64,000 nt of DNA, taken from Anaerolineales bacterium. GTDB lineage: Bacteria > Chloroflexota > Anaerolineae > Anaerolineales > Villigracilaceae. The notes below the pieces were generated by a model. It was given only the letters and a program-made list of their open reading frames with translations. It made no database searches and was not told the DNA's origin. A program made the translations under genes and the position numbers. Each line of letters opens with the position of its first letter. Positions within the stretch are counted from its first letter, which is position 1. Of the stretch, positions 5,833 to 48,830 are shown one piece after another. The DNA is taken from NCBI GenBank assembly GCA_013140605.1, contig JABFSL010000007.1, positions 1 to 64,000 on the forward strand, written 5' to 3'.

Positions 5833-5894
5833 TTCAGCCCTCGCCGCCTTATCCATTTGGCGGCGTTGCGCTTAATTTCATTTTAGGAGCATCC

Positions 5895-6470
5895 ATGATC
5901 AAAAGACTTTTTGACTGGCTGAAACAGCCTTTGGGTCTGATTGCGGTGGGGATCGCATTTTTGGCGTTGTTCAGCCTTGCGGCCTATGGCATATTTCAGA
6001 GCCAACAATCGCCGGCGCAGCCGATTCAATTCCCTCACGCCACACATGCCGCGCGAGGTCTTCAGTGTTTGTATTGTCACCCCGGTGCTGCCCGCGGCCC
6101 GTCTGCCGGCATTCCCGCGCAAGCCAAATGCTGGGCCTGCCATCAACAGATCCAAAAGACCCTGGATAGCCAATTGGCGGATACCCAGTTCCCGCTTTTG
6201 AAACCATTGGTTGCGGCGGTCACGAGCAATACGCCTCTTGAGTGGGTGCCTGTTGCGATGGTGCCGGATTTCGTTCAATTTAATCACCGCGCCCATGTGG
6301 CCGCGGGACAGAACTGCGAAAATTGCCACGGCGATATGACCAAGGTGACTGTCGCGGAAAATCCGCAGGTATTCAATATGGGTTTTTGTTTGAATTGTCA
6401 TAAAAAGGTCGCAGGCGAGAACCATGAATTATTGGTGAAACTCACCGACTGCGGCACGTGCCATTATTAA
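5895..6470 (+). CDS. actA: pentaheme cytochrome c, ActA-like subunit
   Basis: Five CXXCH motifs (CLYCH, CWACH, CENCH, CLNCH, CGTCH), N-terminal TM; ATG 5895 after AGGAG. Confidence 0.8.
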   Translation: MIKRLFDWLKQPLGLIAVGIAFLALFSLAAYGIFQSQQSPAQPIQFPHATHAARGLQCLYCHPGAARGPSAGIPAQAKCWACHQQIQKTLDSQLADTQFPLLKPLVAAVTSNTPLEWVPVAMVPDFVQFNHRAHVAAGQNCENCHGDMTKVTVAENPQVFNMGFCLNCHKKVAGENHELLVKLTDCGTCHY

Positions 6471-6490
6471 CCGGGCGAAAGGAAACAACC

Positions 6491-8704
6491 ATGAGCGATA
6501 AATTATCCCGGCGTGATTTTCTAAAACTGGCTGGTGTGGGCGCGGCATCCACTGCGGTCCTCACGGGGTGCGGGCCGGCTTCGCGTTCTGTCAAACGCGA
6601 GCCATACATGCAAATGCCCGAGTACACCTATAACGGCCTGAGCACATATTACGCCACCACATGCCGCGAATGCGCGGCCGGATGCGGACTCGTTGTCCGC
6701 ACATCACAAGGACGCGCCATCAAAACCGAAGGGAATGCGAACAATCCGCTGAACCTCGGCAAGACCTGCGCGCGCGGACAGGCGACATTGCACGGTCTCT
6801 ATAACCCAGATCGTGTGACCGACCCAATCAAACGCACACGCGGAAATGCCTCTGGCGATATTGTCACATGGGAAAACGCCACGCAGATAGTTGCCGACGC
6901 CCTCAAGAATAACAAACCCGAAGAGATCGCCTTCTTAATGGGCATGGCCCCGGATCATCTCTTTGACCTGGTAGCTGATCTTGCCAATTCGACAGGCATC
7001 AACGCCCCTGTGAGATTTGGCGCGTTGAACATGTTTGAATCCCGCGCCACATTGAGCAAGGCCGCTGAGAATCTTTTTGGTGAAGCTGGCCTGCCCTTCT
7101 TCGATGTGGGTGGGGCGCAGGTGGTCTTCTCCTTCGGCGCGAACTTCCTTGAGACGTGGCTCTCGCCCGTTTCATACACTCGTGGATTTGCAGGTCTGCG
7201 CGAAGGCCAAACCAAGAAGCGCGGGACTTTTGTTCAATTTGAATCGCGCATGTCTTCAACGGCTGGCAAGGCGGATGAATGGATGCCGCTTCGCCCAGGG
7301 ACCGAAGCCTTGGTCGCGCTTGCAATTGGCAGACTAGCCTCTGAATTACGCGGCGGCTCAATGCCTCGCGCCTTCGCAGATGTTGATCCGTTGGAAGCCG
7401 CATCGAAATCTGGCATCAAACTTGAAACACTTGAACATCTGGCTGAGATGTTCGCCAATTCAACTGGCGCGCTGGCAATTCCCGGCGGAACGGCTCTCGG
7501 CCAGAGCAATGGTCTCGCCGTTGCTGAAGCTGTGCTGGCCTTGAATGCCATTGCCGATAATTTTGGCAAGCCCGGCGGCGTATTCTTCTCTGCACTTGCT
7601 CCCAACCAGACCGAATATCAACGCTCCGCTTCTGTGAAGGAAATGCAGGAATTCGTTCAACAAATGGCTGATGGCAAATTCAAGGTTCTGTTCGTGCATG
7701 GCCTCAATCCTATTTTTGAATTGCCCGCTTCTTTGGATTTCAAAAATGCATTGAAGAATGTTGAGCAGGTGATTTCCTTCGCCACCTTCCCCGATGAAAC
7801 CGCATTGGAATCTGATTACGTCTTCCCCGATCATCACGGACTTGAGTCATGGGGTTACCAGCGTGTAGCCACTGGTTCTGCTCAACCTGTTCTTTCGGGC
7901 GCACAGCCAGTTGTTTCTCCCTTCTATAACACTCGCGCAACCGCCGACGTTTTAATTGCCGCCGCTCAACTTGCCAGTGGAAAATTTGCAGAGGCTTTGC
8001 CTTTCCAGGATGAAGTTGAATTCCTGCAAAGTAAAATTTCTCCGCTGATGAGTGAAGCGGATGGTTTCTTCTCTGCGGCGGATATTGATACCTTTGCGGC
8101 TTATTTCCAACAATATGGCGGCTGGTGGAAGTTGTCTGATGGACGCGCTGTTCCCAATTCTGCGGATGTGCTCAATCGCAGTTTGAGCAGCGCAGAAGCG
8201 GAATTTGCCGGCGAAGGTGAATTCTTCTTCGTGCCATTCGTCTCACCGACATTGGCTGAAGCTGGCGCGAACAAACCGTGGCTTCAGGAATTGCCCGATC
8301 CCACAACCACTGTCATGTGGAATACGTGGGTTGAGATCAATCCCGTCACTGCCGAAGAACTCGGTCTCAAAGATGATGATGTCGTGACGATCACGAGCGA
8401 AGCCGGGGTGTTGGAAGTGCCAGTTTACCGCTACCCAGCCATCCGTCCAGATACGATCGCGATTCCTTTTGGTCAGGGTCATACTGCCTATGGTCGCTAC
8501 GCTACTGCATTAGATGAAAACGGAAAGATTATAAAGCGTGGCGTCAATCCAACAGATTTACTTGGTCAACACTTTAATGAAGCAGGTGACCTTGCATTTG
8601 CCGGTATGAAAGTCAATATTAAAAAGACTGGGAAGAAACAATTGCTTTCACGCCTTGAAAGTATTATGGGTGTCTATGGTGTGGGCCTTGGCGAGGAGAA
8701 GTAA
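6491..8704 (+). CDS. molybdopterin oxidoreductase-like subunit (ActB1/QrcB-like)
   Basis: Tat signal SRRDFLKLAGVGAAS; CRECAAGCGLVVRTSQGRAIKTEGNANNPLNLGKTCARGQA. Confidence 0.8.
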   Translation: MSDKLSRRDFLKLAGVGAASTAVLTGCGPASRSVKREPYMQMPEYTYNGLSTYYATTCRECAAGCGLVVRTSQGRAIKTEGNANNPLNLGKTCARGQATLHGLYNPDRVTDPIKRTRGNASGDIVTWENATQIVADALKNNKPEEIAFLMGMAPDHLFDLVADLANSTGINAPVRFGALNMFESRATLSKAAENLFGEAGLPFFDVGGAQVVFSFGANFLETWLSPVSYTRGFAGLREGQTKKRGTFVQFESRMSSTAGKADEWMPLRPGTEALVALAIGRLASELRGGSMPRAFADVDPLEAASKSGIKLETLEHLAEMFANSTGALAIPGGTALGQSNGLAVAEAVLALNAIADNFGKPGGVFFSALAPNQTEYQRSASVKEMQEFVQQMADGKFKVLFVHGLNPIFELPASLDFKNALKNVEQVISFATFPDETALESDYVFPDHHGLESWGYQRVATGSAQPVLSGAQPVVSPFYNTRATADVLIAAAQLASGKFAEALPFQDEVEFLQSKISPLMSEADGFFSAADIDTFAAYFQQYGGWWKLSDGRAVPNSADVLNRSLSSAEAEFAGEGEFFFVPFVSPTLAEAGANKPWLQELPDPTTTVMWNTWVEINPVTAEELGLKDDDVVTITSEAGVLEVPVYRYPAIRPDTIAIPFGQGHTAYGRYATALDENGKIIKRGVNPTDLLGQHFNEAGDLAFAGMKVNIKKTGKKQLLSRLESIMGVYGVGLGEEK

Positions 8705-8706
8705 CC

Positions 8707-9432
8707 ATGATCAAACCTGAAGAAATTAAGATGAGCACAGACGAAAGCGGCAAATGGGGTATGGTCATTGACCAGGATATTTGCACCGGCTGTCAGGCCT
8801 GCGTGGCCGCGTGCGCGATGGAAAATAATATTTCGTTTGTTGGTGAAGCGGACTCAGGTTATGGCCGCTCCATGCACTGGATCCGCATTGAGCGTTTTTG
8901 GGAGGGTGAGTATCCCGAAGTAAAGATGACTCCCAACCAGCCGATGATGTGCCAGCAATGCGGAAGCGCAACCTGTGAACCAGTCTGCCCCGCGTTTGCG
9001 ACTATTCATTCACAGGCCGAACAATTAAATTTGCAGGTTTACAACCGTTGTATTGGTACACGGTATTGCGCGAACAACTGTCCGTATCAGGTGCGTTCCT
9101 TTAACTGGCGTGATTATGAACGTCCCGAACCTTTGCCGAATCAATTTAATCCAGATGTAACCGTCCGCCGCCGTGGTGTGATGGAAAAATGCACATTCTG
9201 CATTCAACGCATTCATAAGGCGCAGGATAAGGCGAAATCAGAAGGACGCGAAGTCCTGGATGGTGAATTCACCACTGCCTGCGCACAAGCCTGTCCTGCA
9301 AGCGCCATCACCTTTGGCCGCGTGGACGATCCCGAATCTCTCGTCTCACAATTGGCTCATCGTGGTCATGGAGTTAAACATCTTGAAGAACTTGGCACGT
9401 TACCAAACGTGACCTACTTCAAGGGAGGGTAA
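8707..9432 (+). CDS. 4Fe-4S ferredoxin-type subunit (ActB2/QrcC-like)
   Basis: Cys motifs CTGCQACVAAC, CQQCGSATCEPVCP, CIGTRYCANNCPYQVRSFNW, CTFC...CAQACP. Confidence 0.85.
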   Translation: MIKPEEIKMSTDESGKWGMVIDQDICTGCQACVAACAMENNISFVGEADSGYGRSMHWIRIERFWEGEYPEVKMTPNQPMMCQQCGSATCEPVCPAFATIHSQAEQLNLQVYNRCIGTRYCANNCPYQVRSFNWRDYERPEPLPNQFNPDVTVRRRGVMEKCTFCIQRIHKAQDKAKSEGREVLDGEFTTACAQACPASAITFGRVDDPESLVSQLAHRGHGVKHLEELGTLPNVTYFKGG

Positions 9433-9434
9433 TT

Positions 9435-10901
9435 ATGGCTGGATATAATAATAATGCTGTGCACAAAAAAGTAGAATCTGCTCATCCCAAGGCCGAATCT
9501 CATCACCATGATGAAGAGCATTTCCGCGAAAAGCACTTAATGCTTGATCCGCTTCCACGCGGACAGATGAACGATATGGTCATGGAATCCATGACAACCA
9601 CCTCGTGGAAGTTTTGGGCTGTATTCGGGCTTCTGAGTGTGATCGTAGCTGTATGCTTGTTCTATGTTTGGGGTTACATGATCTCAGAAGGCCTGGGAGT
9701 GACAGGCAAGAACCGCCCATCCTATTGGGGCCTCTTCCTCGTCAATACCGTGTTCTGGATCGGCATCAGTCATGCGGGCACGTTCATCTCTGCCATTCTG
9801 CGTGTTTTCAAAGCTGAGTTTCGCCGCCCGTTCACCCGTGCCGCAGAGTTGATGACCACCTTCGGTCTCGTACAGGCTGGGTTTAGCGTTTTCATGCATT
9901 TGGGCCGCGTATGGCTTTTCTACTGGCTCCTTCCTTATCCCAACCAGCGCATGTTGTGGCCCAATCTTCATTCCCCTCTTTCGTGGGACTTGCTTGCGAT
10001 TACAACATACCTGCTGTCCTCAACCATGTACCTCTTCCTGCCTTTAATCCCGGATCTGGCAATGGCACGCGACAAATCCACCGGCTGGCGTAAGACATTC
10101 TATAAAACTCTTGCGCTTGGTTTCCGCGGTACAGAGGGAGAGTGGACACACTTGCGGAATGCGATGAACATCTTCGCGTTTGCGATCATCCCGGTCATGT
10201 TCTCGGTACATACCATAGTGTCATGGGACTTTGCGGCTGCGACCCGTCCGGGTTGGAATTCCACTATTTTTGGTCCATACTTCGTTGTTGGTGCGTTGCA
10301 CTCTGGCATGGGCGCGGTCGTCATGGTTCTCGCAGTTGTACGCGGCACAATGAAGAACATGAAGTACTTCATCCGCCCCGAACACTTTGACGCTATCGGT
10401 AAACTCATGCTCATTATTTCAATGGCATGGGCCTACTTCTTCTTCAACGATTATATGGTGCAGTGGTACGGCGGCGATAAGTGGACGAAGCAATTGCTCC
10501 ATTTTCATGAAGCCGGCCCCATGGGCTGGATGTGGTTTGCCATGTTGATTGCTAATATCGCGATCCCATGGGCAGTCTTATGGAATCCAAAATGGCGTTC
10601 CACACCGTGGATTGTATTTGTTGTGGGCCTGATAATTAATTTTGGTATGTACCTCGAACGTTATATTATCGTCCCTGTTTCACTCTCGATCAACCGTATG
10701 CCTTTTACATGGAGGCTGTATTATCCGCGCGTTGAAGTTCTGTTGGGCATTGGAACACTGGCGTTCTTCATCTGGCTCTACATGGCGGCTTCCCGTCTCA
10801 TCCCTCTCATCCCCGTTTGGGAAGTTGAGGAAGGCCAGATGGCGCACGAACTCAAGAAATTTGGACGCGAGACCGTTGTATCGGTCAGCGAATTGGAATA
10901 G
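9435..10901 (+). CDS. actC: NrfD/PsrC-family quinol-interacting membrane subunit (ActC-like)
   Basis: 488 aa polytopic protein in conserved gene order after the FeS subunit. Confidence 0.85.
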   Translation: MAGYNNNAVHKKVESAHPKAESHHHDEEHFREKHLMLDPLPRGQMNDMVMESMTTTSWKFWAVFGLLSVIVAVCLFYVWGYMISEGLGVTGKNRPSYWGLFLVNTVFWIGISHAGTFISAILRVFKAEFRRPFTRAAELMTTFGLVQAGFSVFMHLGRVWLFYWLLPYPNQRMLWPNLHSPLSWDLLAITTYLLSSTMYLFLPLIPDLAMARDKSTGWRKTFYKTLALGFRGTEGEWTHLRNAMNIFAFAIIPVMFSVHTIVSWDFAAATRPGWNSTIFGPYFVVGALHSGMGAVVMVLAVVRGTMKNMKYFIRPEHFDAIGKLMLIISMAWAYFFFNDYMVQWYGGDKWTKQLLHFHEAGPMGWMWFAMLIANIAIPWAVLWNPKWRSTPWIVFVVGLIINFGMYLERYIIVPVSLSINRMPFTWRLYYPRVEVLLGIGTLAFFIWLYMAASRLIPLIPVWEVEEGQMAHELKKFGRETVVSVSELE

Positions 10902-10911
10902 GAGGATTCAC

Positions 10912-11469
10912 ATGGCTGACAATATTTCCAGAAGAGAGCGTTCTGGACAGGTGTCCCTGTTAGCGGTCTTCCCTGACCTCGAGCCTGCTGCAGATGCAAT
11001 TGACCATCTCCGCACTTTGGGCATTTCGGACGATCAAATGAACGTCATCTCCGGTATTCCCGTTACCGAAGCCATGCTTGGCCGTCCCAACCAGTGGACG
11101 AACGTTCCCCGGCTCGCAGGCGGCGGTGCTGTGTTGGGATTTTTGGGAGCCGTCTTTCTCATGTATGGTGTTCCCTATTTGTATCCATACCCCATTCAGG
11201 TAAGCACGCAGGCTGTTATCCCCGGCCCGCCCACCGTTGTCGTATTGTTCGAGATAACCATGCTCGGTATGCTGCTCTCAACCTTCCTCGGCGTATTTCT
11301 AGATAGCTATTTCCCCAACTATCGTCCGATGGAATATGTAAAAGAAGTCAGCGATGGAAAAATTGCCGTCTTCTTTATCTGTCCGGAAGAAAGCAGGGAA
11401 AAATTCACCAAAGCCATGACCGCCCTCGGCGCGGAAAAGGTTGAGGTTGCGGAGGTTGAACACCTATGA
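10912..11469 (+). CDS. actD: ActD-like DUF3341 membrane subunit
   Basis: Start trimmed to ATG 10912 after AGGAGG; two TM segments, DUF3341-like sequence. Confidence 0.75.
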   Translation: MADNISRRERSGQVSLLAVFPDLEPAADAIDHLRTLGISDDQMNVISGIPVTEAMLGRPNQWTNVPRLAGGGAVLGFLGAVFLMYGVPYLYPYPIQVSTQAVIPGPPTVVVLFEITMLGMLLSTFLGVFLDSYFPNYRPMEYVKEVSDGKIAVFFICPEESREKFTKAMTALGAEKVEVAEVEHL

Positions 11470-12020
11470 GATTGTTCAAACAACTCGTTGGAGTTTTTGC
11501 AGTGCTTGGTGTGCTTGTTGGCGCGCTGGCGATATTTGCTTTTGACGTGGTCAAGATTGACTGGGTCGTCTTCATGGAGATCCAGCCTTCCTTCGGCACA
11601 CAAGAACAGCCGCGCGCTGTTCCAGCCCGATCCATTCCAGTGGAAGGCGCTGCTTATATCCCCGGAGCAGGCGCTCCTGTCAACCCAGTAGCTGCGGATG
11701 AAGTATCACTTTCACGCGGTTCCCAACTTTTCGCCACACATTGTCAGATGTGCCATGGTGATGAAGGGTTGGGGAATGGCCCTGTTTCCGCTTTCCTCGT
11801 CAAAAAGAAACCGGCAGACCTCACCAGCGATCTGGTTCAAAGTAAAAGTGACGGCAGTATTTTCATGGTCATCACCAATGGCGTATATAACCCGAATAAC
11901 ACACTTTTCCCCGGTGTTGAATTCTCAGGTCAATGCCCGCCTTTGAATGAGAACTTCACCGTTCGCGAACGGTGGGATCTGGTCAATTATGTTCGCACGC
12001 TCAAAGCGGCAGGACAATAG
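11466..12020 (+). CDS. actE: monoheme cytochrome c, ActE-like
   Basis: N-terminal TM, CQMCHGDEGLGNGPVSAFLVKKKPADLT; 4-bp overlap with actD. Confidence 0.8.
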   Translation: MRLFKQLVGVFAVLGVLVGALAIFAFDVVKIDWVVFMEIQPSFGTQEQPRAVPARSIPVEGAAYIPGAGAPVNPVAADEVSLSRGSQLFATHCQMCHGDEGLGNGPVSAFLVKKKPADLTSDLVQSKSDGSIFMVITNGVYNPNNTLFPGVEFSGQCPPLNENFTVRERWDLVNYVRTLKAAGQ

Positions 12021-12032
12021 GGAGGTCCCAGC

Positions 12033-12701
12033 ATGAATGATGATGTTCGAAAAACCATCTATACCACATTGACGTTATTTTTATTTGGCGTGATCTTGTG
12101 GATCGGCTTTCTATTTGTCAACGCCTGTGGGTTTACCCTGACTTGTAAACAAGGCAATTTCCCTGTTGATCGCACGCCAATGCCCACGCTATTGCCGGCC
12201 ACAATGCCTGCCATGCAAACGGGCGGCGGTGATGTTACTGTTTCCAATCACGAAACGTGCCGTGTCGCGGCGGTTGATCTGGTTGGCGCATGGGTGTCAG
12301 CTGGCGCTTCAGAGACTGAAGTTTTCCAATTCACAGATATTAATTTGCAGAATTGTGAAGCCACATTTACAGAAGTGAAACCGCTTTTTGTGGATGCCAA
12401 TCTTTGGTATTCAGGTTCACGTTCCTGCGTTTCCTGCCACTCAGTGGATATGACCATTTCTTCCGCGCAATTGGATTTGAGCAGTTACGCTGGCATCACA
12501 TCCGGTTCGCGCCGCGCTGATTCAGGATCCAAAGGCACGGACATTCTCGGCGCTGGCAAATGGGAATCATCCCTGTTGTTCGACTTCATTTCCACCAGCC
12601 ACGCCGACGCTCCCGGGCATAAGAATGCCTTATCAGATCTGGTGATATTTGCAGGAAAACCACACCCTGTTCCTGAACCAACTATTACACCAACTCCATA
12701 A
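12033..12701 (+). CDS. membrane-anchored monoheme protein, last gene of Act operon
   Basis: N-terminal TM and CVSCHSVDM...LDLSSYAGITSGSR resembling planctomycete-type cytochrome c domain. Confidence 0.55.
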   Translation: MNDDVRKTIYTTLTLFLFGVILWIGFLFVNACGFTLTCKQGNFPVDRTPMPTLLPATMPAMQTGGGDVTVSNHETCRVAAVDLVGAWVSAGASETEVFQFTDINLQNCEATFTEVKPLFVDANLWYSGSRSCVSCHSVDMTISSAQLDLSSYAGITSGSRRADSGSKGTDILGAGKWESSLLFDFISTSHADAPGHKNALSDLVIFAGKPHPVPEPTITPTP

Positions 12702-12710
12702 TCAAAAGAA

Positions 12711-12740
12711 AAAAACATCCTTGAAAAAGGATGTTTTTTT
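12711..12740. terminator. intrinsic terminator
   Basis: AAAAACATCCTTGAAAAAGGATGTTTTTTT. Confidence 0.8.
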
Positions 12741-12741
12741 C

Positions 12742-13010
12742 TGGCGGAGAGGGCGGGATTCGAATATCACCTCCCTCAACGGGGGCGCGTGAACCTAAAA
12801 TAAAAAGTCCCTTGGTATAGGGACTTTTCTTCTGGCGGAGAGGGCGGGATTCGAATATCATCCCCTAAATGGGGACGCGTGAACCTAAATAAAAACGCCC
12901 CTTTTTAGGAACGTTTTTTCTGGCGGAGAGGGCGGGATTCGAATATCATCCCCTCAATGGGGACGCGTGAACCTAAAATAAAAAGTCCCTTGGTATAGGG
13001 ACTTTTCTTC
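12742..13010 (-). repeat. three tandem units carrying the 3' end of tRNA-Ser plus hairpins
   Basis: TGGCGGAGAGGGCGGGATTCGAATATC at 12742, 12833 and 12921 (periods 91, 88, 90 to the intact tRNA at 13011). Confidence 0.85.
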
Positions 13011-13100
13011 TGGCGGAGAGGGCGGGATTCGAACCCGCGAACCTTTGTGGGTTACACGCTTTCCAAGCGTGCGCGCTAAGCCAGACTACGCGACCTCTCC
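13011..13100 (-). tRNA. tRNA-Ser(GGA) with encoded CCA
   Basis: Minus strand GGAGAGGTCGCGTAG...CGCTTGGAAAGCG...GGGTTCGAATCCCGCCCTCTCCGCCA; long variable arm. Confidence 0.95.
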
Positions 13101-13893: not shown

Positions 13894-16800
13894 ATGAGAA
13901 CGACAACTCAGTCGGGGTTATCATCTTTTTCGGCATTTATAGTTGCGGTAGTGACGCTTCTGGGGATTACCGGCGTGGCCTTTGCCGGCGGCGGAGCCAT
14001 GTTTACTCCCGGGAGCCTCAGTACGGTTCCCGGCGCACCTTTGGGGGGGATAACCTCTCATTCTGAGATTCAACAATGCAGTACCTGCCATGCCGCCCCT
14101 TGGGATACGGACACCATGGCAGATCGTTGTCTGGCCTGCCACAGCGATATCACCGCCCAATTACAGGACCCAACCAGTTTACATAGCCTCGTCCGTTTCG
14201 GTGCGACAGATCTCAATTGCCGCACCTGTCATACGGAACATCACGGCCCAACGGCATCCCTTACTCGAATTCCACCGGGCTGGGACCCGCATGATCAGCT
14301 TGGTTTTTCCCTAAAGTCACACCGTCTGCGAATGGACGGTACTCCGTTTGAATGTAAAGACTGCCATGTAAATGGTTATAGCGGACCGTTCGATCAGGCA
14401 ACTTGCGCAAACTGCCATTTACAAGTTGACCAGGTATTTACCCAGGAACATATGCTGACCTTCGGGGCAGATTGTCAGGCCTGTCATGATGGGATCGATT
14501 CGCACGGATCAAACTTTGACCATAATAAGGTTCCGTTCAATCTTGTTGGAATTCATGCTCTTACAGCATGTTCCCAGTGCCATGTCAACGCGCGCAACCT
14601 CGCCGACCTGCAAGCCACCACCCAGGATTGCTATGCCTGTCACGCGAAGGATGACCAGCATGAGGGTCGGTTCGGAACGAAATGTGGAGTTTGCCATACT
14701 CCCGAAGGCTGGGGAAAATCCGCCCAGTTCGATCATGATCTCGCAAACTTCAAATTAAGAGGGCTGCATCTGAAGGTGGCCTGTGCAAGCTGCCATGTAA
14801 ACAATGTTTATAAAGGCATCCCCTCAGATTGTTTCTCCTGTCATAAGCAGGATGATAAACATGCCGGCGAATTTGGCCCCCAATGCGAATTATGTCATGT
14901 GGCAGAAGGTTGGAACAGGGCGGTCGATCATTCGAAATTTGCATTCAAGCTCGATGGCAAACACACCACCGTGGCCTGCGAGAGCTGCCATATCAATGCG
15001 CTCTTCATCGGCACGCCCATGGACTGCGCCTCCTGTCATAAAAAGGATGATGCCCATCTTGGAAGATTTGGCAATTCATGCGGAGACTGCCACACCACAG
15101 AGAATTGGACATCCGCAACATTCGATCACAATACGGTCTCATTCAAACTCAATGCGCATCAAACCAAATCAGACGGCAGCGCTTTCGTTTGCAAGGATTG
15201 CCATGTAAAAAATTACGCATCGCCTTTTGACCAGAATATATGCGCCAACTGTCACTTGCGGGTGAATCAGGCATTTGCCACGGAACATATTTTGACGTTC
15301 TGGACAAACTGCATGGCCTGTCATGATGGGATTGACTCACACGGTTCAAACTTTGACCATAACCGGGTCCCGTTCAATTTGGTTGGGAAGCACGCTTTGG
15401 CACTTTGCTCCAACTGCCATCTCAATGACCGCACCATCGCTGATATGCAAGCCACTCCGCAGCAATGTTATACCTGCCATCAAAAAGATGATTTCCACAA
15501 CGGCCAGTTTGGACAGGACTGTGCGGCCTGTCATGCGCCCGATGGATGGAAACCCGCCCATGTGGATCACTCCAAGTTTGCCTTCCACCTTGACGGAAAA
15601 CATGCCACTGTAGCATGCGAAAACTGTCATATCAATGGCGTCTTCAAGGGCACGCCCATGGACTGCGCCTCCTGTCATATTGATGACGATGCGCATGGCG
15701 GTACTCTTGGCACTCAATGCGAAACCTGCCATACACCTGACGGTTGGAAACCCGCCAAAGTTGATCACTCGAAATTTGCCTTCAAACTCGATGGCAAACA
15801 TGCAACAGCCGCCTGTACAGATTGTCATAAGGATAATTTGTTCAAAGGCACGCCCATGGACTGCGCCGCATGTCATCTCATGGATGACGCCCATGCAGGT
15901 AGTCTCGGTACAGAATGCGGAACCTGTCACAATCCCAACGGTTGGAGTCCCGCCACTTTCGATCACAACACATCTTCCTTCAAACTTACTGCTCATCAAA
16001 CCAAATCGGATGGGACTGCGTTCGCCTGTAAAGATTGTCACGTAAAGGGCTATGCTCCGCCGTTCGATCAAAATTCATGCGGTAATTGTCATTTACAAAT
16101 TGACCAAGCATTTTCCACAGACCACTTCCTGACTTTTGGCACAGACTGCATGGCCTGTCACGATGGGGTGGAGTCACACGGCTCAACTTTTGACCATAAC
16201 AAGGTGCCGTTTAATCTGATCGGCAAACATGCGCCGTTGGCCTGTTCCAAGTGCCATGTCAATGCTCGCAAGTTCGCTGATTTGCAGAACACTCCCCAAA
16301 CGTGTTTCTCATGCCACTCGCAGGATGACCATCACAACGGTCAGTTTGGAACCGACTGTGCCGCGTGCCATACTTCCGAAGGCTGGGAACTGGCAACTGT
16401 CGATCATTCCAAATTTGCCTTCCATCTTGATGGGAAACATTCCACCGTTGCCTGTGAGAAATGCCATGTGAATGGTGTCTTCAAAGGCACGCCTCAAGAC
16501 TGCGGTTCCTGTCATACCAAGGATGATGCGCATCAGGGTCAGCTTGGAACGCAATGCGGAACCTGCCACACTCCCGATGGCTGGAAGCCCGCCAAGGTGG
16601 ATCACTCCAAATTCGCCTTCCATCTCGATGGTCAACATGCAACTGCTGCATGTACAGATTGCCATAAGGATAACTTGTTCAAAGGCACGCCCATGGACTG
16701 TGCCTCCTGCCATCTCAAGGATGATGCCCACTCCGGGCAGCTCGGAACAGAGTGCGCCACCTGCCATACACCCGAAGGTTGGAAACCCGCCAAAGTTGAC

Positions 16801-19647
16801 CACTCGAAGTTTGCGTTCCATCTTGATGGTCAACACGCAACTGCCGCCTGCACAGATTGCCATAAGGATAATTTGTTCAAGGGCACGCCAATGGATTGCG
16901 CCGCCTGTCATATTGACGATGATGCCCATGCGGGCAGTCTTGGCACACAATGCGGGACTTGTCATAGCCCCAACGGTTGGAGTCCCGCCACATTCGATCA
17001 CAACACCGTTTCATTCAAACTTACTGCTCACAAGACCAAATCAGATGGGGCCACATTTGCCTGTAAGGATTGTCACGTAAAAGGCTATGCCGCGCCATTC
17101 GACCAGAACACATGCGGCAATTGCCATTTGCAATTTGATCAAATCTTCTCCACGGAACATTTCCTGACCTTTGGCACAGACTGTATGGCCTGTCACGATG
17201 GCGTTGAATCACATGGTTCGAATTTTGATCATAACAAGGTGCCATTTAATCTGATCGGAAAACATGCGCCGTTGGAATGTTCCAAGTGTCATATCAACGC
17301 GCGCAAGTTCTCTGATTTGCAGAACACTCCACAGGCATGTTTCTCCTGCCACTCGCAGGATGACCATCACAACGGTCAGTTTGGAACCGACTGCGCGGCC
17401 TGTCACTCTCCCGAAGGCTGGGAGAATGCAAAGGTGGATCATTCCAAATTCGCATTCCATCTGGATGGAAAACATGCGACAGTGGCTTGCGAGAATTGTC
17501 ATGTGAACGGTGTCTTCAAAGGCACGCCTCAAGATTGTGCCTCCTGCCATACCAAGGATGACGCTCACAAAGGTCAGCTTGGCAATCAGTGCGGAAGCTG
17601 TCACTCGCCCGAAGGTTGGAAGCCCGCGAAAGTGGACCACTCGAAGTTTGCCTTCCACCTTGATGGTCAACATGCAACTGTGGCCTGTGAGAATTGCCAT
17701 ATCAACGGAGTCTTCAAAGGCACGCCTCAAGACTGTGCTTCCTGTCACGCCTCTGATGACGCGCATAATGGTACCTATGGTGCGCAATGCGCCACCTGCC
17801 ACAATCCCACCGATTGGAAACAGGTTGCCTTTGACCACAACACGACCAGATTTACTCTGAAGGCACACAAGGACAATGCATGTAAAGACTGCCATGAAAA
17901 TGGATTTGTCGCGCCATTCGATCAAAACACATGCGGCAATTGTCACTTGCAAATTGACCAGCCATTTGCCACCGAGCATTTCATAACATTCGGAACAAAT
18001 TGTATAGCCTGTCATGATGGTGAAGACTCACACGGCTCAAGCTTTGACCATAATCAGGTGCCGTTCAATCTGATAGGAAAACACGCGCCGGTAGCCTGTT
18101 CCAAGTGCCATATCGCTTCGCGCAACCTGCATGATCTGAAAGCAACCTCCCAGGAATGTATCTCCTGTCACGCACAGGATGACCATCACAACGGTCAGTT
18201 CGGAACTGACTGCGCCGCGTGTCACTCTCCCGAAGGCTGGGAGAATGCAAAGGTGGATCATTCATTATTCGCCTTCCATCTTGACGGCAAACATGCCAGC
18301 GTGGCTTGCCAGAATTGCCATATCAACGGTGTCTTCAAAGGCACGCCCATGGACTGCGCATCCTGTCACAGTGATACAGATCCGCATGGCGGCAGTTTAG
18401 GCTCGCAATGCGAAACCTGCCATACACCCAATGGCTGGAAGCCGAGCAGTTTTGATCATAACAATTCCATCTTCAAGCTGACTGGCCGGCACAACACAGT
18501 TGTCTGTAGCAATTGTCATATCGACTTGAAGTTCAAGGGCACGCCTACAAACTGCGCCTCATGCCACTCAAAGAATGATCCGCATGCCGGCAAGCTTGGC
18601 ACCGATTGTGCTTCATGCCATACAACCAACGGCTGGACTCCGTCCACCTTTGACCATAGCCGCTCCACCTTCGCATTGGACGGCAAGCATACATCAGTAG
18701 CATGCAGTCAATGCCATACAGATAAATTGTTCAAAGGCACGCCATCTGACTGTGCCTCCTGTCACAGCGACACCGACCCGCATGGCGGCGCGCTTGGCAA
18801 TCAGTGTACAGACTGTCATACAACGAGCGGATGGAAACCGAGCAGCTTTAATCACAACAATTCCATCTTCAAATTGACCGGCAAGCATGACAGCGTTACC
18901 TGTACCAAATGTCATACCGACCTGAAGTTCAAAGGTACGCCCACAAATTGTTATTCCTGTCATGCCGCGGATGATTTCCACAAGGGCGCGTTTGGACAGA
19001 ATTGCGCGGCCTGTCACGCCACCTCGGGTTGGAAGCCCTCCACCTTCGATCACAGCAAATCGGCCTTCCCGTTGACTGGAAAGCATAGCAGCACGGCTTG
19101 TACCAATTGCCATATCAATAATGTTTTCACTGGTACGCCGAAGGACTGTATCTCCTGCCATCAGAAAGACGACCATCACAACGGCACGTTTGGAACGAAT
19201 TGCGCGGCCTGTCACTCCACTTCAGGCTGGAAGCCGTCCACCTTCGATCACAGCAAATCGGCCTTCCCACTCACCGGAAAGCATACCAGCACGACTTGTA
19301 CCAAGTGCCATGTCAACAATGTCTTTAAGGGCACGCCGACAAATTGCTATGCCTGCCATGCCAACAATGACCGTCACGGCGGCAAATACGGCACGAATTG
19401 CGCGGCCTGTCATTCCACTGCGGCTTGGAGACCCGCCACCTTCAATCACACCTTCCCGCTCGATCATGGCGAAAGCGGAACTGTGGCCTGCGCGACCTGT
19501 CACCCCGGCGGCAATACCAGCTCATACACCTGCTTTGGTTGTCACGAACACACAAGTACGAACATGGCAGATAAACACAAAGAGGAACGCGACTACGCGC
19601 CGAACAAGTGCGCAGACTGTCATGCCAACGGTCAAAGTAACGACTGA
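13894..19647 (+). CDS. giant secreted multiheme cytochrome c (81 CXXCH)
   Basis: Signal peptide then 81 CXXCH motifs by manual count; internal repeats; GAGGG upstream of ATG 13894. Confidence 0.93.
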   Translation: MRTTTQSGLSSFSAFIVAVVTLLGITGVAFAGGGAMFTPGSLSTVPGAPLGGITSHSEIQQCSTCHAAPWDTDTMADRCLACHSDITAQLQDPTSLHSLVRFGATDLNCRTCHTEHHGPTASLTRIPPGWDPHDQLGFSLKSHRLRMDGTPFECKDCHVNGYSGPFDQATCANCHLQVDQVFTQEHMLTFGADCQACHDGIDSHGSNFDHNKVPFNLVGIHALTACSQCHVNARNLADLQATTQDCYACHAKDDQHEGRFGTKCGVCHTPEGWGKSAQFDHDLANFKLRGLHLKVACASCHVNNVYKGIPSDCFSCHKQDDKHAGEFGPQCELCHVAEGWNRAVDHSKFAFKLDGKHTTVACESCHINALFIGTPMDCASCHKKDDAHLGRFGNSCGDCHTTENWTSATFDHNTVSFKLNAHQTKSDGSAFVCKDCHVKNYASPFDQNICANCHLRVNQAFATEHILTFWTNCMACHDGIDSHGSNFDHNRVPFNLVGKHALALCSNCHLNDRTIADMQATPQQCYTCHQKDDFHNGQFGQDCAACHAPDGWKPAHVDHSKFAFHLDGKHATVACENCHINGVFKGTPMDCASCHIDDDAHGGTLGTQCETCHTPDGWKPAKVDHSKFAFKLDGKHATAACTDCHKDNLFKGTPMDCAACHLMDDAHAGSLGTECGTCHNPNGWSPATFDHNTSSFKLTAHQTKSDGTAFACKDCHVKGYAPPFDQNSCGNCHLQIDQAFSTDHFLTFGTDCMACHDGVESHGSTFDHNKVPFNLIGKHAPLACSKCHVNARKFADLQNTPQTCFSCHSQDDHHNGQFGTDCAACHTSEGWELATVDHSKFAFHLDGKHSTVACEKCHVNGVFKGTPQDCGSCHTKDDAHQGQLGTQCGTCHTPDGWKPAKVDHSKFAFHLDGQHATAACTDCHKDNLFKGTPMDCASCHLKDDAHSGQLGTECATCHTPEGWKPAKVDHSKFAFHLDGQHATAACTDCHKDNLFKGTPMDCAACHIDDDAHAGSLGTQCGTCHSPNGWSPATFDHNTVSFKLTAHKTKSDGATFACKDCHVKGYAAPFDQNTCGNCHLQFDQIFSTEHFLTFGTDCMACHDGVESHGSNFDHNKVPFNLIGKHAPLECSKCHINARKFSDLQNTPQACFSCHSQDDHHNGQFGTDCAACHSPEGWENAKVDHSKFAFHLDGKHATVACENCHVNGVFKGTPQDCASCHTKDDAHKGQLGNQCGSCHSPEGWKPAKVDHSKFAFHLDGQHATVACENCHINGVFKGTPQDCASCHASDDAHNGTYGAQCATCHNPTDWKQVAFDHNTTRFTLKAHKDNACKDCHENGFVAPFDQNTCGNCHLQIDQPFATEHFITFGTNCIACHDGEDSHGSSFDHNQVPFNLIGKHAPVACSKCHIASRNLHDLKATSQECISCHAQDDHHNGQFGTDCAACHSPEGWENAKVDHSLFAFHLDGKHASVACQNCHINGVFKGTPMDCASCHSDTDPHGGSLGSQCETCHTPNGWKPSSFDHNNSIFKLTGRHNTVVCSNCHIDLKFKGTPTNCASCHSKNDPHAGKLGTDCASCHTTNGWTPSTFDHSRSTFALDGKHTSVACSQCHTDKLFKGTPSDCASCHSDTDPHGGALGNQCTDCHTTSGWKPSSFNHNNSIFKLTGKHDSVTCTKCHTDLKFKGTPTNCYSCHAADDFHKGAFGQNCAACHATSGWKPSTFDHSKSAFPLTGKHSSTACTNCHINNVFTGTPKDCISCHQKDDHHNGTFGTNCAACHSTSGWKPSTFDHSKSAFPLTGKHTSTTCTKCHVNNVFKGTPTNCYACHANNDRHGGKYGTNCAACHSTAAWRPATFNHTFPLDHGESGTVACATCHPGGNTSSYTCFGCHEHTSTNMADKHKEERDYAPNKCADCHANGQSND

Positions 19648-19663
19648 GACATGAATCAGAGTC

Positions 19664-19699
19664 AGCCCCGTATCCAAAAGATGCGGGGCTTTTATTTTT
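19664..19699 (+). terminator. intrinsic terminator
   Basis: AGCCCCGTATCCAAAAGATGCGGGGCTTTTATTTTT. Confidence 0.8.
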
Positions 19700-21351: not shown

Positions 21352-23595
21352 TTACTCGTCCCTAACCTCTATCAAAACAGCGCGGACAATGCGCCGGAAT
21401 CGATAGCTATTGTTTTTCTCGTTATACCCCTGACAGGTTATCAGCGTCAGAAACGAATTGTCTTCCAGGTGCTGAAGGGCATAATCGGTGGTTCCAGGTC
21501 TCACTAGCAGCGTCTTGCGGACTTCGAAAATATATTGCTCGCCATACAAGTGGACGATGATCTGGTCGCCATAAGCGAGAGACTTGATGTTTACAAAGGG
21601 ACCGGGTAAGCCATCCGCGTTGGTGACGTGCGCGGTCAGCGCCGAGTTGCCCTCCCAAGTGGGGAAGGCTGTGCCGTTAAGCCAGCCAACCTCATTGCCA
21701 AGCCAGTCTACATCCCAAGTGTTGTTGAGCTTGGGCACACCAACGATATTAGCGTTGACATTCAAAGCGGGGATTTCCAGCCAGATGTCGCCCAATGCAC
21801 GATATGCCAACTCCGTGGGTTGATTCAGGAGTTGGGTAACGACCTTCGGCGCAAAGCCGGTATGTGGCAGGGATATTGCCTCGCCATCTCCTCCAGATAC
21901 TGCTGTTGAAATGGTGAAGTCAATTATGAAATCGGATATGCCGTTATTAAGTTCCAGCCCGGCAACGCTCCAGATGGATGTGGTTCCACAGACGAATAAG
22001 CGATACGTTCCATCTATCAGCGAACTGGCGAGGGTGAGTGTGGAGTTCATGGTCGCGTTGTTGTAACTGGCATTGCTGATGGTTTGTTTGATATCGTCAC
22101 CAGCAAGACCGGCCTTGCAGGATTGGGTATTGAAAGCCTTATCCGAGCCGCGTTCAACCAACAGATAGTTGTTGATGTTCTGGGCACCATTTGCCGAGGC
22201 ATCGCCCACCATATCCTGATTGAAGGTGACAAAAATGGAGCTAAGGCTTGTGAGAATAGCATTGGTGGTAGGAGTGGAGGTCGTGACAGCGGGAATGACC
22301 GGACCGAACTCATATGCGCCGATATCGCATCCCGCGCCCTGTGGACGGTTCACGCCGCGCTGGTCAACATTGCCAATTCCGAGGCATATTGCGGCATTAC
22401 CCACGTCAATGGCATGGGAACCGCTGAGCAAAGCCATTGTCTGGGTAGGACCACCGTTATCTGCCAGCTGACCGAGATTGATCTCGGCAATCGTCTTTTG
22501 GGTGGCATTACCGCATGACCCGTCGGTATCGAAGTTGTAGGCTTCTGCGGTAATCGAGCTCGTGCCTCCAGGTGAGCAATCCCCGCCAGAAACGCTATTT
22601 GCAACGATAGTATTACTGAGCGTTGCTATGCCGAAGATGCCGCCGCCGACAGATGCCTGATTGCCAGAGAAGGTACTGTTTGTCGCGCTCACGGTGCCCA
22701 TGTAGCTGTAGTTGTAAATGCCACCGCCGTGGGGTGCCCGATTACCAGAGAAGGTACTGTTCTTCACGGTCAAAGTGCCAAACCAGTTGCTGATGCCGCC
22801 GCCACTACTTTTCGCGTAATTGCCGGAGAAGGTACTGTTTTGTACGTGCAAGGTTCCTCCGTCGTGGATGCCTCCGTTCTGAATGCCGCCGCCGTAGGTG
22901 TCTGCCTGATTGCTGGAGAAGGTGCTGTTCGTCACGGTCAGGTTGCCGCTGTTCCGAATGCCACCGCCATTGCTGGGGTATGCCTGATTGCTGGAGAAGC
23001 TACTGTTCGTTACGGTCAGGGTGCCCCAGTTGTAAATGCCACCGCCGGAGAATCCCTGATTGCCGAAGAAGGTACTGTTCATCACGGTTAGGGTGCCTCC
23101 ATTGTGGATGCCGCCGCCACTGCTTCCGACTGCCTGATTGCCAGAGAGGGTGCTGTTTGTCACAGTCATGATGCCAGTGTAGGGATTGACAATACCGCCG
23201 CGACCATTCCTGATTGTGACGCTGGAGATGTTTACCGTAAACGCTCCGGTGTTATGAAAGATGCGCTCAATATTGTCGCCGTCAATGATTGTACTGCCCG
23301 CATCCGCGCCAACGATGTTCAGGCTCTTGGTGAAATCGAGATCGCCGCTTGCATTCGCATCCTCACCGTTCGCACCGGTGAGCGTAATCGTACAAGCTGC
23401 CGGGATGTTGATCGTGTCACCAGAGGCAGCTGCGTTCATCAACGTTCGTAACTGCCCGTCAGCGCCGCTATCTCTGCAATCAGTAACAGTGTGTGTCGCC
23501 GCGTATACAGGCGAGGCTCCTACCGCGCTGAAAGTCAACGCTAGCAGGTTGGCGAAGATCAGGGTATGAAAAAATTTGTTTTGTAAGGATTTCAT
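21352..23595 (-). CDS. secreted Pmp-like beta-helix repeat protein with LPHTGF motif and C-terminal sortase-like domain
   Basis: Signal peptide; repeated NSTFSGNQA..GGGI; SLPHTGFAP; sortase-like H (TAHVTNADG), C (TLITCQGY), R (RFRRIVRA). Confidence 0.85.
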   Translation of the reverse strand: MKSLQNKFFHTLIFANLLALTFSAVGASPVYAATHTVTDCRDSGADGQLRTLMNAAASGDTINIPAACTITLTGANGEDANASGDLDFTKSLNIVGADAGSTIIDGDNIERIFHNTGAFTVNISSVTIRNGRGGIVNPYTGIMTVTNSTLSGNQAVGSSGGGIHNGGTLTVMNSTFFGNQGFSGGGIYNWGTLTVTNSSFSSNQAYPSNGGGIRNSGNLTVTNSTFSSNQADTYGGGIQNGGIHDGGTLHVQNSTFSGNYAKSSGGGISNWFGTLTVKNSTFSGNRAPHGGGIYNYSYMGTVSATNSTFSGNQASVGGGIFGIATLSNTIVANSVSGGDCSPGGTSSITAEAYNFDTDGSCGNATQKTIAEINLGQLADNGGPTQTMALLSGSHAIDVGNAAICLGIGNVDQRGVNRPQGAGCDIGAYEFGPVIPAVTTSTPTTNAILTSLSSIFVTFNQDMVGDASANGAQNINNYLLVERGSDKAFNTQSCKAGLAGDDIKQTISNASYNNATMNSTLTLASSLIDGTYRLFVCGTTSIWSVAGLELNNGISDFIIDFTISTAVSGGDGEAISLPHTGFAPKVVTQLLNQPTELAYRALGDIWLEIPALNVNANIVGVPKLNNTWDVDWLGNEVGWLNGTAFPTWEGNSALTAHVTNADGLPGPFVNIKSLAYGDQIIVHLYGEQYIFEVRKTLLVRPGTTDYALQHLEDNSFLTLITCQGYNEKNNSYRFRRIVRAVLIEVRDE

Positions 23596-23742
23596 TGCTT
23601 ACCCTTGAAAAGCAGAAAATTTTCTCGGCCTTTCAGAGGTCTCTAACTTCTTTCCCAAAAAAATAACAATGAAGGAGACCAAATTGAGGTTTGATTCATT
23701 GTATAAGAAGTGAGGGGTTTCGTCAATATTTTAACCTGAAGT

Positions 23743-24828
23743 TCAGACATTAGATCGGACAGGCAGGAGGCAGGAATAAAAGGATAAAAGAGCATGAGAG
23801 AAAGCATGCAAAACATCAGGAGGGGAAAGGTTGATTTTGAGTTTCAAGAAAATGAACAGACCAGAATAAAGCTTTTGTTTGCGACTGTCTTTTGGAAAAA
23901 TAGTCTCTCGTAAAGTTTCACCTAACCAGAGCGCGATCGTGTATGCAATCAAAAGAAGCGCCACCATCTTCTCCATGTGATCTCGGCGTTTCGACATCAA
24001 CTTTCCCATGCCTAACAAGTTTTTCAGATCTCGAAAACTCTCTTCTATCTTCATGCGTTGCAAATAAATATCCAGACCATCTTCGGCTTTGAGATTGGTC
24101 ATCACCCACATCGGTTGGCTGAAACCTTCTTTCCAGACCCCGATCAGATTGACAAATACCTTGCCCATGTAAAAAACCTTGTTGATAATCCGCGTTTCTC
24201 CTTTGGAAACCGTCAAAGCAATTATGTTCCCTTCCTGATCAGTGAATTTTGGTCCCACTTTCAGCCGAATGACAAAATTCAATCCTTCGAATACCAAATT
24301 TTCCATCAACTCCAAATAGCTAAACTCACGGTCCAGGACCAAAGGTCGATCCCCGATCATTTCTTTGACCTTGGCGAAGGCTTCGAAGTGGTGACGGTTT
24401 CGTGAGGTAGATTCTTGATTAATGGTTTTGGAAGAATAACTTACAAAACCACAGGGAATGGAGCGTCCGTGAAAAGCCGTCGACAAAAATAACAGCCAAT
24501 ACCCGCTTGTCTGACCATCACTCAATGTACCGACATAGTCCGTCTTCTTTGCCTGGGGTCGCGGCATTTCAGTTGGATCTCCAATCACAAAGGAGGCGCT
24601 CTCTTGAAATAACCGCAGTAATGTCTCCTGGGGACTTGTCTTTTCAAGAAACCGCTGGATGTATTTGTAATTCCTATCTTCTTTGCCCACCATTTCTCGC
24701 GCAATATCGCTCAATCGCGGTGAGCGAGCCTTCAAAATCCCTTCGATGATCGGCTTTGCTTTTTTGACTGTCTCTTTTTCATCAAACATAGACTGCACAA
24801 ACTGCAAAAGATGGGTAAACTTGTTCAT
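23743..24828 (-). CDS. IS4-like DDE transposase
   Basis: LVLDREFSYLELMENL and MKIEESFRDLKNLLGMGK (D...E signature); element ends not confidently defined. Confidence 0.75.
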   Translation of the reverse strand: MNKFTHLLQFVQSMFDEKETVKKAKPIIEGILKARSPRLSDIAREMVGKEDRNYKYIQRFLEKTSPQETLLRLFQESASFVIGDPTEMPRPQAKKTDYVGTLSDGQTSGYWLLFLSTAFHGRSIPCGFVSYSSKTINQESTSRNRHHFEAFAKVKEMIGDRPLVLDREFSYLELMENLVFEGLNFVIRLKVGPKFTDQEGNIIALTVSKGETRIINKVFYMGKVFVNLIGVWKEGFSQPMWVMTNLKAEDGLDIYLQRMKIEESFRDLKNLLGMGKLMSKRRDHMEKMVALLLIAYTIALWLGETLRETIFPKDSRKQKLYSGLFIFLKLKINLSPPDVLHAFSHALLSFYSCLLPVRSNV

Positions 24829-24936
24829 GGAAACCTTCTTTCTGGTTTGGGACCCTAAGCCCGTATAAACCAGTATAGAAGGTTTCCTTCTTTTTGTCCG
24901 AACTCTTGCCCGAAGATCAGTTTAACCGTTTCTTTG

Positions 24937-26244
24937 CATGGCTGTAGCAAAGTCAGGAAAAAGGGGTAACAAGAAGGGCAAAAGCTAGGGAAAGATGAGC
25001 GGCAAAAAACCGCCTTGCTTGTGCCGCATTTAAAAAGCCGGCTTGACGGATCAATGCCAAGATAAGATTGTTGATATTGGCCATTATTCGTGCGCCATTG
25101 CCAATGGTGAAGCGAGTGGCGTCTTCACGGAGCGTGAGATCCCGCCGATAATGGGAGCCTGTTTCAATACCCCAATGAGCACGACGAACTTCCAAGAGTT
25201 TCATCGGCGTGACTTTTTTGCGCGATAGGCTGGTAATTCCAAACTCAACTTCACGAGAAGTTTTGTAACAAACTCCTTGTCGCCACCATTGGAATTCACG
25301 TTCGAGACGATAGACTTGCGCCAACCCTGGCCAGGCAGCATAGGTATTGAGCATTTCGCTGGTCGTCAAAGTTCGTTTCTCGATCCGTCCATGACCCTTA
25401 TTAACTTTTTGTGCTTGAAGAAAATCTGTTTGGATTTTCCCAAACCCAGGCTTGGGATATTCAGGCGCAAAAAGGGATTGGATGTTTTTGTACAGATTGG
25501 ATTGGTTTTCTTTCACGGGAAAAACATAGTCACCTTTTTCATCCAAGATCGTTTGTGCCAAGCGTTTTTGAGTATGCAAAGCGTCTCCTGTGACCACTTT
25601 TCCAGCAATTTTCGCCAATTTTATAGCTTCCGGCGCCTTGGTGATTTCATTTTCCTTGCTCCCTACTCCCACTTGCGATATGGTTTTCCCTGCCTGCACA
25701 TCATACACACTCAGGGCATATTCCGATGTGCCATCCTCGCGCTTCAACATGCCCAATAAGGCTTTGCCATCCAAGGCACAAATGTCGCCGCGCTTGTCGC
25801 TTTGATTGTATTCCCCCACCATTCGTTCTATTTCTGTTTCATAGACTTTGTATGCCATAAGCCGCTGATAGGTGCTTCGTTCTGGCATGCGTTTTGGTTT
25901 GATCCGCAGGGCTGCCACTACTTCACTCTGGTGATGATTGCCCCACTCTGCCATTGCAGTCGGCGAATCTGCCCCGCCCAACTTTGCCAACAACACAATC
26001 ATCAACAAGGTTGCCAGGCTGTACCTTTTCCCTCTCGCTTTCCGCGTATCTGTTAGTGTCTGCAATCGCCCGTATACGCTCCCTTTGTCATAAATCACCC
26101 CTTCTGCGCTAATTTCTTGCCCTTTGCCAATCGTGCTATACTCCATTTCAGATCCTCCTCGTTTTTTGCTTGTTTTGTCACTCGCAATTTTACCGAGAAG
26201 GATCTGTTTTTTATCTTTTGTCAAGCGACTTTGCTACAGCCATA
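24937..26244 (-). mobile_element. ISAs1-family insertion sequence, 1308 bp
   Basis: Terminal inverted repeats ATGGCTGTAGCAAAGTC / GACTTTGCTACAGCCAT; 10-bp direct repeat CGTTTCTTTG at 24927-24936 and 26245-26254. Confidence 0.9.
24953..26224 (-). CDS. ISAs1-family transposase
   Basis: ALDGKALLGMLKREDG, VTGDALHTQKRLAQTILDEKGDYVFPVKENQ, RRAHWGIETGSHYRRDLTLREDATR. Confidence 0.9.
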   Translation of the reverse strand: MTKDKKQILLGKIASDKTSKKRGGSEMEYSTIGKGQEISAEGVIYDKGSVYGRLQTLTDTRKARGKRYSLATLLMIVLLAKLGGADSPTAMAEWGNHHQSEVVAALRIKPKRMPERSTYQRLMAYKVYETEIERMVGEYNQSDKRGDICALDGKALLGMLKREDGTSEYALSVYDVQAGKTISQVGVGSKENEITKAPEAIKLAKIAGKVVTGDALHTQKRLAQTILDEKGDYVFPVKENQSNLYKNIQSLFAPEYPKPGFGKIQTDFLQAQKVNKGHGRIEKRTLTTSEMLNTYAAWPGLAQVYRLEREFQWWRQGVCYKTSREVEFGITSLSRKKVTPMKLLEVRRAHWGIETGSHYRRDLTLREDATRFTIGNGARIMANINNLILALIRQAGFLNAAQARRFFAAHLSLAFALLVTPFS

Positions 26245-26339
26245 CGTTTCTTTGAACAATAGCTTCGCCAAAGTTAGGCTGAAAAGTAGTTTTGCGAAAA
26301 CATCCCAAGCCCAGAAAGCCTATAATAAAGATTCTAGTA

Positions 26340-26930: not shown

Positions 26931-27008
26931 CCCACCTGCGGATTTGGAGAATAAAAGAAAAAGTCATCCAGGTTTTCTAAAACTCGGATGACTTTTTGAG
27001 TTGCTGGT

Positions 27009-48812: not shown

Positions 48813-48830
48813 GTTGTTGTTCCTCCGCGA

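What the first reader, a model, noticed from the sequence alone, without database searches (positions are those of the whole stretch)
13894..19647. Giant secreted cytochrome with 81 CXXCH motifs
Manual count of the 1917-aa product gives 81 CXXCH heme-binding motifs after a signal peptide and no obvious C-terminal membrane anchor. This is far above the decaheme-scale cytochromes usually described for extracellular electron transfer. It lies 1.2 kb downstream of a quinol-oxidising Act/CISM operon on the same strand, so a periplasm-spanning or extracellular conductive role is plausible but inferred.
Basis: partly seen in the sequence, partly recalled or inferred. Interest (0 to 1): 0.85.

Follow-up and report, generated by a model that had tools for sequence, protein, structure and literature searches.

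The report
Giant 81-heme repeat-built secreted cytochrome
An uncultured Chloroflexota bacterium encodes a secreted protein built from repeated three-heme modules carrying 81 hemes, an oversized version of an already described family of putative electron-wire cytochromes, whose relatives in the same genus carry 47 to 105 hemes.

Summary
In detail: 13894-19647 encodes 1917 aa with 81 CXXCH, a signal peptide and no other hydrophobic segment. It is neither a sequencing nor an assembly artefact. The longest exact internal DNA repeat is 47 bp, and orthologues in other genomes of the genus carry 47, 57, 75, 78+ and 105 hemes. All 162 Cys are in motifs. In 66 homologues, 15 conserved non-motif His match the first 15 hemes one to one, so bis-His coordination is likely throughout. 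The protein is a chain of 66-aa triheme modules (spacing 32-16-18), grouped into about five tandem copies of a ~12-heme block that short relatives carry once. The family is widespread in Anaerolineales and shares its module with the IMP-adjacent 24-heme cytochrome of proteobacterial PCC3-like clusters. Short members sit directly behind an inner-membrane protein with the PCC3/PCC4 bis-heme-b signature and an FAD oxidoreductase. The giant has left that operon, and its genome lacks both partners. Act lies upstream in close relatives too, but terminators and an opposite-strand tRNA-Ser separate it. Best reading: a secreted, wall-zone electron wire. Eighty-one is not a record (85 and 113 published), and large Anaerolineales cytochromes with variable heme number are published. 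It is a new variant of a known kind; function is inferred.

The parts
13894..19647 (+). Giant multiheme cytochrome c, 1917 aa, 81 CXXCH
   Evidence: Pfam PF14522 Cytochrome_C7 E=7e-81
13894..13986 (+). Signal peptide, cleavage likely after AFA (residues 1-31)
   Evidence: hydropathy peak at residues 12-30 only; A-F-A conserved in the giant clade
14272..15093 (+). First copy of the ~12-heme block (residues 127-400), the part carried once by short family members
   Evidence: alignments A1/A2
15124..15930 (+). Second copy of the 12-heme block, 61% identical to the first
15934..16767 (+). Third copy of the 12-heme block, 62%
16969..17802 (+). Fourth copy of the 12-heme block, 62% (one extra triheme module precedes it)
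   Evidence: spacing table
17836..18621 (+). Fifth copy of the 12-heme block, 57%
18409..19488 (+). Tail of consecutive canonical triheme modules, hemes 63-78 (overlaps the end of the fifth block)
   Evidence: spacing 32-16-18 repeated
19489..19644 (+). C-terminal cap with hemes 79-81, spacing 14-26 (13-26 in most relatives)
19664..19690 (+). Terminator-like hairpin directly after the gene (11 bp stem plus T run), suggesting a monocistronic unit
13011..13100 (-). tRNA-Ser(GGA) between Act and the cytochrome, opposite strand
12707..13010 (.). Terminator-like hairpins and three tandem ~90-bp units each with a copy of the tRNA-Ser 3' end; separates Act from the cytochrome
5892..12701 (+). Act (alternative complex III) genes: pentaheme c, MoCo-like protein, FeS protein, NrfD-type, ActD, two monoheme c; upstream neighbour, separate transcription unit

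Best explanation
A secreted single-chain electron wire. The protein is an over-expanded member of an Anaerolineales cytochrome family made of 66-aa triheme, bis-histidine modules. Shown: 81 heme sites, one conserved distal His per heme in the tested part, strict triheme periodicity, about five tandem copies of a 12-heme block, an export signal, no anchor, purifying selection, and a place in the same clade as a 47-heme second cytochrome of an operon whose inner-membrane protein has the PCC3/PCC4 bis-heme-b signature. Inferred: after Sec export and heme attachment the chain forms an extended heme array lying in or across the cell-wall zone (no outer-membrane machinery was found). It carries electrons between a cytoplasmic-membrane quinol oxidase and extracellular acceptors or donors. 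Short relatives would be fed by the PCC3-like membrane b-cytochrome plus NAD(P)H/FAD oxidoreductase. This genome lacks those, so another quinol oxidase, most plausibly the co-located Act complex, would have to serve.
For: 81 motifs, all Cys used, spacing 32-16-18 repeated. In 66 homologues, 14 non-motif His are 100% and one is 94% conserved, matching 15 hemes; the other two non-motif His are at most 12% conserved. Orthologues with 47, 57, 75, 78+ and 105 hemes. Heme counts across the family change in threes (54 of 93 are 3n, 38 are 3n+2). dN/dS about 0.07 between orthologues G008 and G016. 52 loci have the membrane protein next to a family member; all 52 carry two WX3HX13H and SGXXG, the PCC3/PCC4 signature (He et al. 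2017). The same triheme spacing occurs in the IMP-adjacent 24-heme cytochrome of Thiobacillus. The giants form one clade (SH-aLRT 100) that includes the operon-linked 47-heme L063. Omp85 absent. Cytochrome c assembly proteins present in this genome. 23.7 residues per heme, within the range called 'molecular wires' in PMC5566968.
Against: No expression, heme content, localisation or conductivity data exist. AlphaFold models are of moderate to low global confidence (pTM 0.51 and 0.34), no solved structure matches, and heme-heme distances could not be measured. The canonical partners are absent from this genome. It is only one of several multiheme clusters in the genome. Direction of electron flow is unknown.
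Confidence: 0.6

Rival explanations
1. Electron capacitor: the chain mainly stores electrons (up to 81) outside the membrane as a redox buffer while terminal acceptors fluctuate, rather than conducting them over distance.
For: Very high heme density; charge storage has been proposed for large multiheme cytochromes in general (PMC7399161; PMC10734462). The gene appears monocistronic and has lost the conduit operon. A cytochrome bd oxidase lies in the same window, so other acceptors exist.
Against: Storage does not explain strict conservation of an ordered, regular module chain any better than conduction does; the two roles are not exclusive.
Confidence: 0.2
2. Electron uptake wire: as proposed for PCC3 in Fe(II) oxidisers, electrons run inward from an extracellular donor (Fe(II), mineral, partner cell) to the quinone pool.
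For: The module is homologous to the IMP-adjacent cytochrome of PCC3-like clusters, proposed for iron oxidation; one close relative carries a Lac Pavin isolate name.
Against: Nothing in the sequence fixes direction; an Act quinol oxidase next door and NAD(P)H/FAD partners of short relatives point outward as readily; PCC3 itself is unproven.
Confidence: 0.15
3. Neutral repeat inflation of a short periplasmic-type cytochrome, with no role for the extra length.
For: Heme number varies 47-105 among close relatives; the nearest copy of a module is in the same protein for 8 of 13 window modules, showing lineage-specific duplication.
Against: Every copy keeps intact CXXCH, and the reading frame is intact in several species; dN/dS about 0.07 over the first 400 codons.
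Confidence: 0.05

Closest known systems
Large Anaerolineales multiheme cytochromes with variable heme number (PMC7399161, Fig. 5)
   Same: Same order, no porin-cytochrome complex, homologous cytochromes differing by several hemes at a time; probably the same family (their sequences were not compared here)
   Different: Largest class reported there is 30-53 hemes; the 81-105-heme concatemers, the PCC3-like operon partners and the triheme rule are not described in the text read
PCC3 porin-cytochrome cluster (PMC5566968, PMC10734462)
   Same: The IMP-adjacent cytochrome of PCC3-like Thiobacillus clusters has the same triheme spacing and ~36% identity to the N-terminal region; short Anaerolineales members sit behind an IMP with the same motifs
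   Different: No porin, no second diheme-repeat cytochrome, no IMP next to the giant or found elsewhere in its genome
Geobacter GSU1996-type 'nanowire' cytochromes (triheme-domain concatemers, 12-27 hemes; PMC10138318)
   Same: Chain of triheme domains in one polypeptide, Pfam cytochrome c7 match
   Different: GSU1996 has one His-Met heme per domain; here every tested heme has a conserved His; no structural match found
113-heme cytochrome of Ca. Methanoperedens manganicus (PMC7082337) and 85-heme PCC3 cytochrome of Agromonas oligotrophica (PMC5566968)
   Same: Comparable or larger heme number
   Different: Different organisms; homology not tested here
OmcS/OmcE/OmcZ filaments
   Same: Extracellular multiheme conduction is the proposed role
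   Different: Those are polymers of small subunits; here many modules are covalently linked in one chain; no fold match

Membership tests
Anaerolineales triheme-module cytochrome family (this work; PMC7399161) | N-terminal hemes with spacing 17-30-45-16/17-23-32-20-18 followed by 32-16-18 modules and a 13/14-26 cap | tested here: met
Anaerolineales triheme-module cytochrome family (this work; PMC7399161) | One conserved distal His per heme | tested here: met
   15 hemes, 15 conserved non-motif His in 66 homologues; modules beyond residue 400 judged by the same motifs
Anaerolineales triheme-module cytochrome family (this work; PMC7399161) | Located behind IMP and FAD oxidoreductase (short members) | tested here: not met
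   absent at this locus and not found in this genome, IMP controls positive in relatives; IMP met at 52 loci of relatives
PCC3 porin-cytochrome complex | Outer-membrane porin gene in the cluster | tested here: not met
   no such gene recognised in the neighbourhood; no Omp85 in genome
PCC3 porin-cytochrome complex | Inner-membrane protein with two WX3HX13H and SGXXG | tested here: not met
   present beside short homologues
PCC3 porin-cytochrome complex | IMP-adjacent (periplasmic) cytochrome with 21-27 hemes | tested here: inconclusive
   same 32-16-18 module in the Thiobacillus 24-heme gene, but 81 hemes and a different branch; reference PCC3 proteins themselves were not fetched
GSU1996-type c7 nanowire | Tandem triheme c7-like domains | tested here: met
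   PF14522 E=7e-81, periodicity
GSU1996-type c7 nanowire | One His-Met heme per domain (as in GSU1996) | tested here: not met
   conserved His for every heme tested
OmcS/OmcE/OmcZ-type polymer | Fold and polymer interface of those subunits | tested here: inconclusive
   no match, but models are heme-free and of modest confidence
Conductive extracellular cytochrome | Heme loading, extracellular location, conductance | not testable with these tools
   needs experiments

The most novel reading that the evidence does not exclude
A covalent, single-polypeptide heme wire, grown by concatenating whole 12-heme cytochrome blocks, that crosses the cell-wall zone of a bacterium lacking outer-membrane machinery and is driven by the neighbouring Act complex instead of the ancestral PCC3-like membrane partner. 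Wire length would be tuned between species by repeat number (47-105 hemes).
Probability: 0.25. Interest if true: 0.75.

Novelty: new variant of a known kind. Interest (0 to 1): 0.5.

Why it matters
Known cytochrome nanowires (OmcS and kin) are polymers of small subunits. Here evolution appears to have made the long heme array by genetic concatenation, and a series of relatives with 15 to 105 hemes offers a natural length ladder to test what heme number does. The link to the PCC3 inner-membrane signature suggests how Anaerolineales without outer membranes may load such wires.

Tried and rejected
Assembly or frameshift artefact: rejected (longest exact repeat 47 bp, intact orthologues). Operon with Act: rejected as one transcription unit (terminator-like hairpins, opposite-strand tRNA), adjacency kept as a conserved neighbourhood only. 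Record heme number: rejected (85 and 113 published). HmcA: NCBIfam hit far below cut-off. Foldseek against PDB with both models: no significant match. phmmer of the whole protein and of one module against PDB: nothing useful; profiles reach 16-heme and other c3/c7-type cytochromes weakly. PHROGs: uninformative. ResB (system II maturation) was not found in the genome, but Cytochrom_C_asm proteins were. A second NrfD-type complex on G000:C67 has no multiheme partner on its contig.

Full report
Check of the observation. The ORF 13894-19647 on the + strand encodes 1917 aa with 81 CXXCH motifs; all 162 cysteines are in motifs. Shuffled versions of the protein contain 1.4 motifs on average, 5 at most. 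The only strongly hydrophobic stretch is the signal peptide ending at AFA. The longest exact DNA repeat inside the gene is 47 bp, so collapse by short reads is unlikely.

Architecture. The distances between successive motifs are strikingly regular: 32-16-18 residues, a 66-aa triheme unit, interrupted at intervals by a variant 37-17-23-32-20-18. Searching the genome with residues 1-400 recovers four further copies of residues ~127-400 within the same protein at 57-62% identity. The giant is therefore a concatemer of about five 12-heme blocks plus a tail of triheme modules and a C-terminal cap. Short family members hold this block once. Across 93 complete family members the heme number is 3n in 54 and 3n+2 in 38: the family grows by triheme steps.

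Axial ligands. In an alignment of 66 homologues, 14 non-motif histidines of the first 400 residues are fully conserved and one is 94% conserved, while the other two non-motif histidines are at most 12% conserved. There are 15 hemes in that stretch. The likely ligands in a unit are FDH and GKH before one motif and DDxH after another.

Relatives. The same genus holds versions with 105 (G008 = CAIWRB010000095), 78 in a truncated contig (G019), 75 (G016), 57 (G022) and 47 hemes (G064 = L063), plus two cut by contig ends (G007, L061). Giants occur in 8 of 57 genomes of the genus; 44 of 57 have some family member. The wider family is found across Anaerolineales and, more distantly, in Thiobacillus and other Proteobacteria. 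In a tree of 99 N-terminal regions (quick method, SH-aLRT support only) the giants form one clade (100), nested in a 21-row group (96) that also holds the second cytochromes of several two-cytochrome operons. dN/dS over 400 codons is about 0.07 (G008-G016; dS is saturated against the window copy).

Operon context of the family. Clustering neighbours showed a small membrane protein directly upstream of a family member in 52 loci (median 13 bp), an FAD/NAD(P)H oxidoreductase in 46, and a 4Fe-4S protein in 15. All 52 membrane proteins carry two WX3HX13H motifs and SGXXG, the signature that He et al. (PMC5566968) give for the inner-membrane protein of PCC3 and PCC4. The Thiobacillus cytochrome adjacent to that protein has the same 32-16-18 spacing, and the next gene, with 46 hemes, has a different 24-23 diheme repeat. 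By gene order these match the periplasmic and extracellular cytochromes of PCC3; the reference PCC3 proteins themselves were not fetched.

The giant is detached from this operon. Its own genome (96% complete) has no match to the membrane protein or the FAD protein, whereas the other giant-bearing genomes tested have the membrane protein. In L063 the 47-heme orthologue still follows the operon. This is the link between the giant and the PCC3-like system.

Act. The Act genes 5892-12701 are real. They end at terminator-like hairpins; a tRNA-Ser lies on the opposite strand, and the cytochrome has its own terminator. The order Act - tRNA-Ser - giant is contiguous in L061. In G008, G016 and G019 the contigs break in the tandem repeat just there, with an 89-bp overlap of the two contig ends in G016. 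G022 keeps only the tRNA; G007 and L063 have neither. Act occurs in all 10 genomes tested. So Act is a conserved neighbour in the close relatives and a candidate electron source, not an operon partner.

Cell envelope. No Omp85 was found in the genome while the control rang in 7 of 14 genomes, in line with the statement in PMC7399161 that Anaerolineales lack a Gram-negative envelope. Cytochrome c assembly proteins are present.

Structure. AlphaFold models of residues 1-400 (pLDDT 79, pTM 0.51) and of the last 478 residues (pLDDT 71, pTM 0.34) have repeating secondary structure but no significant match in the PDB. Without hemes they cannot test heme spacing, and the low pTM leaves overall shape open.

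Comparison with the known. Heme number is not a record: 85 in a PCC3 cytochrome, 113 in Ca. Methanoperedens manganicus. Large Anaerolineales cytochromes with variable heme numbers are published (largest class 30-53). What I did not find in the papers read is the concatemer architecture reaching 105 hemes in bacteria, the triheme counting rule, and the PCC3-type membrane partner of the Anaerolineales family. The paper library is partial, so priority is not claimed.

Length, as inference only: PMC10734462 suggests that 21-27 hemes of a PCC3 periplasmic cytochrome could span a periplasm; 81 hemes would be three to four times that.

Noticed in passing
window 12742-13100: Three tandem ~90-bp units, each with a ~23-bp copy of the tRNA-Ser(GGA) 3' end and a hairpin, lie beside the real tRNA-Ser; similar arrays with different unit sequence sit at the same place in G008, G016, G019 and L061 and break assemblies.
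   Followed up: partly
window 21355-31549 (-): Three secreted proteins with different N-terminal parts (Chlam_PMP-like repeats, kelch/OLF-like, FG-GAP) all end in a C-terminal sortase domain.
   Followed up: no
window 46251-50240 (-): Cytochrome bd oxidase genes with a pyridine nucleotide-disulphide-type oxidoreductase next to them: oxygen use or protection is likely.
   Followed up: no
window 23746-26224 (-): Two adjacent ORFs that look like transposases (by reading of the translations only) downstream of the cytochrome region.
   Followed up: no
L117 2231-5437, L099 2999-5203, L138 9662-13375: A second repeat type in the same clusters: diheme units with spacing 17-24 (Chloroflexota) or 24-23 (Thiobacillus), distinct from the triheme module.
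   Followed up: partly
G000 contigs C4, C86, C110, C111 (L050, L052-L054, L059): Further multiheme cytochrome clusters in the same genome (up to 15 hemes in a 2267-aa protein), apparently unrelated to the giant.
   Followed up: no
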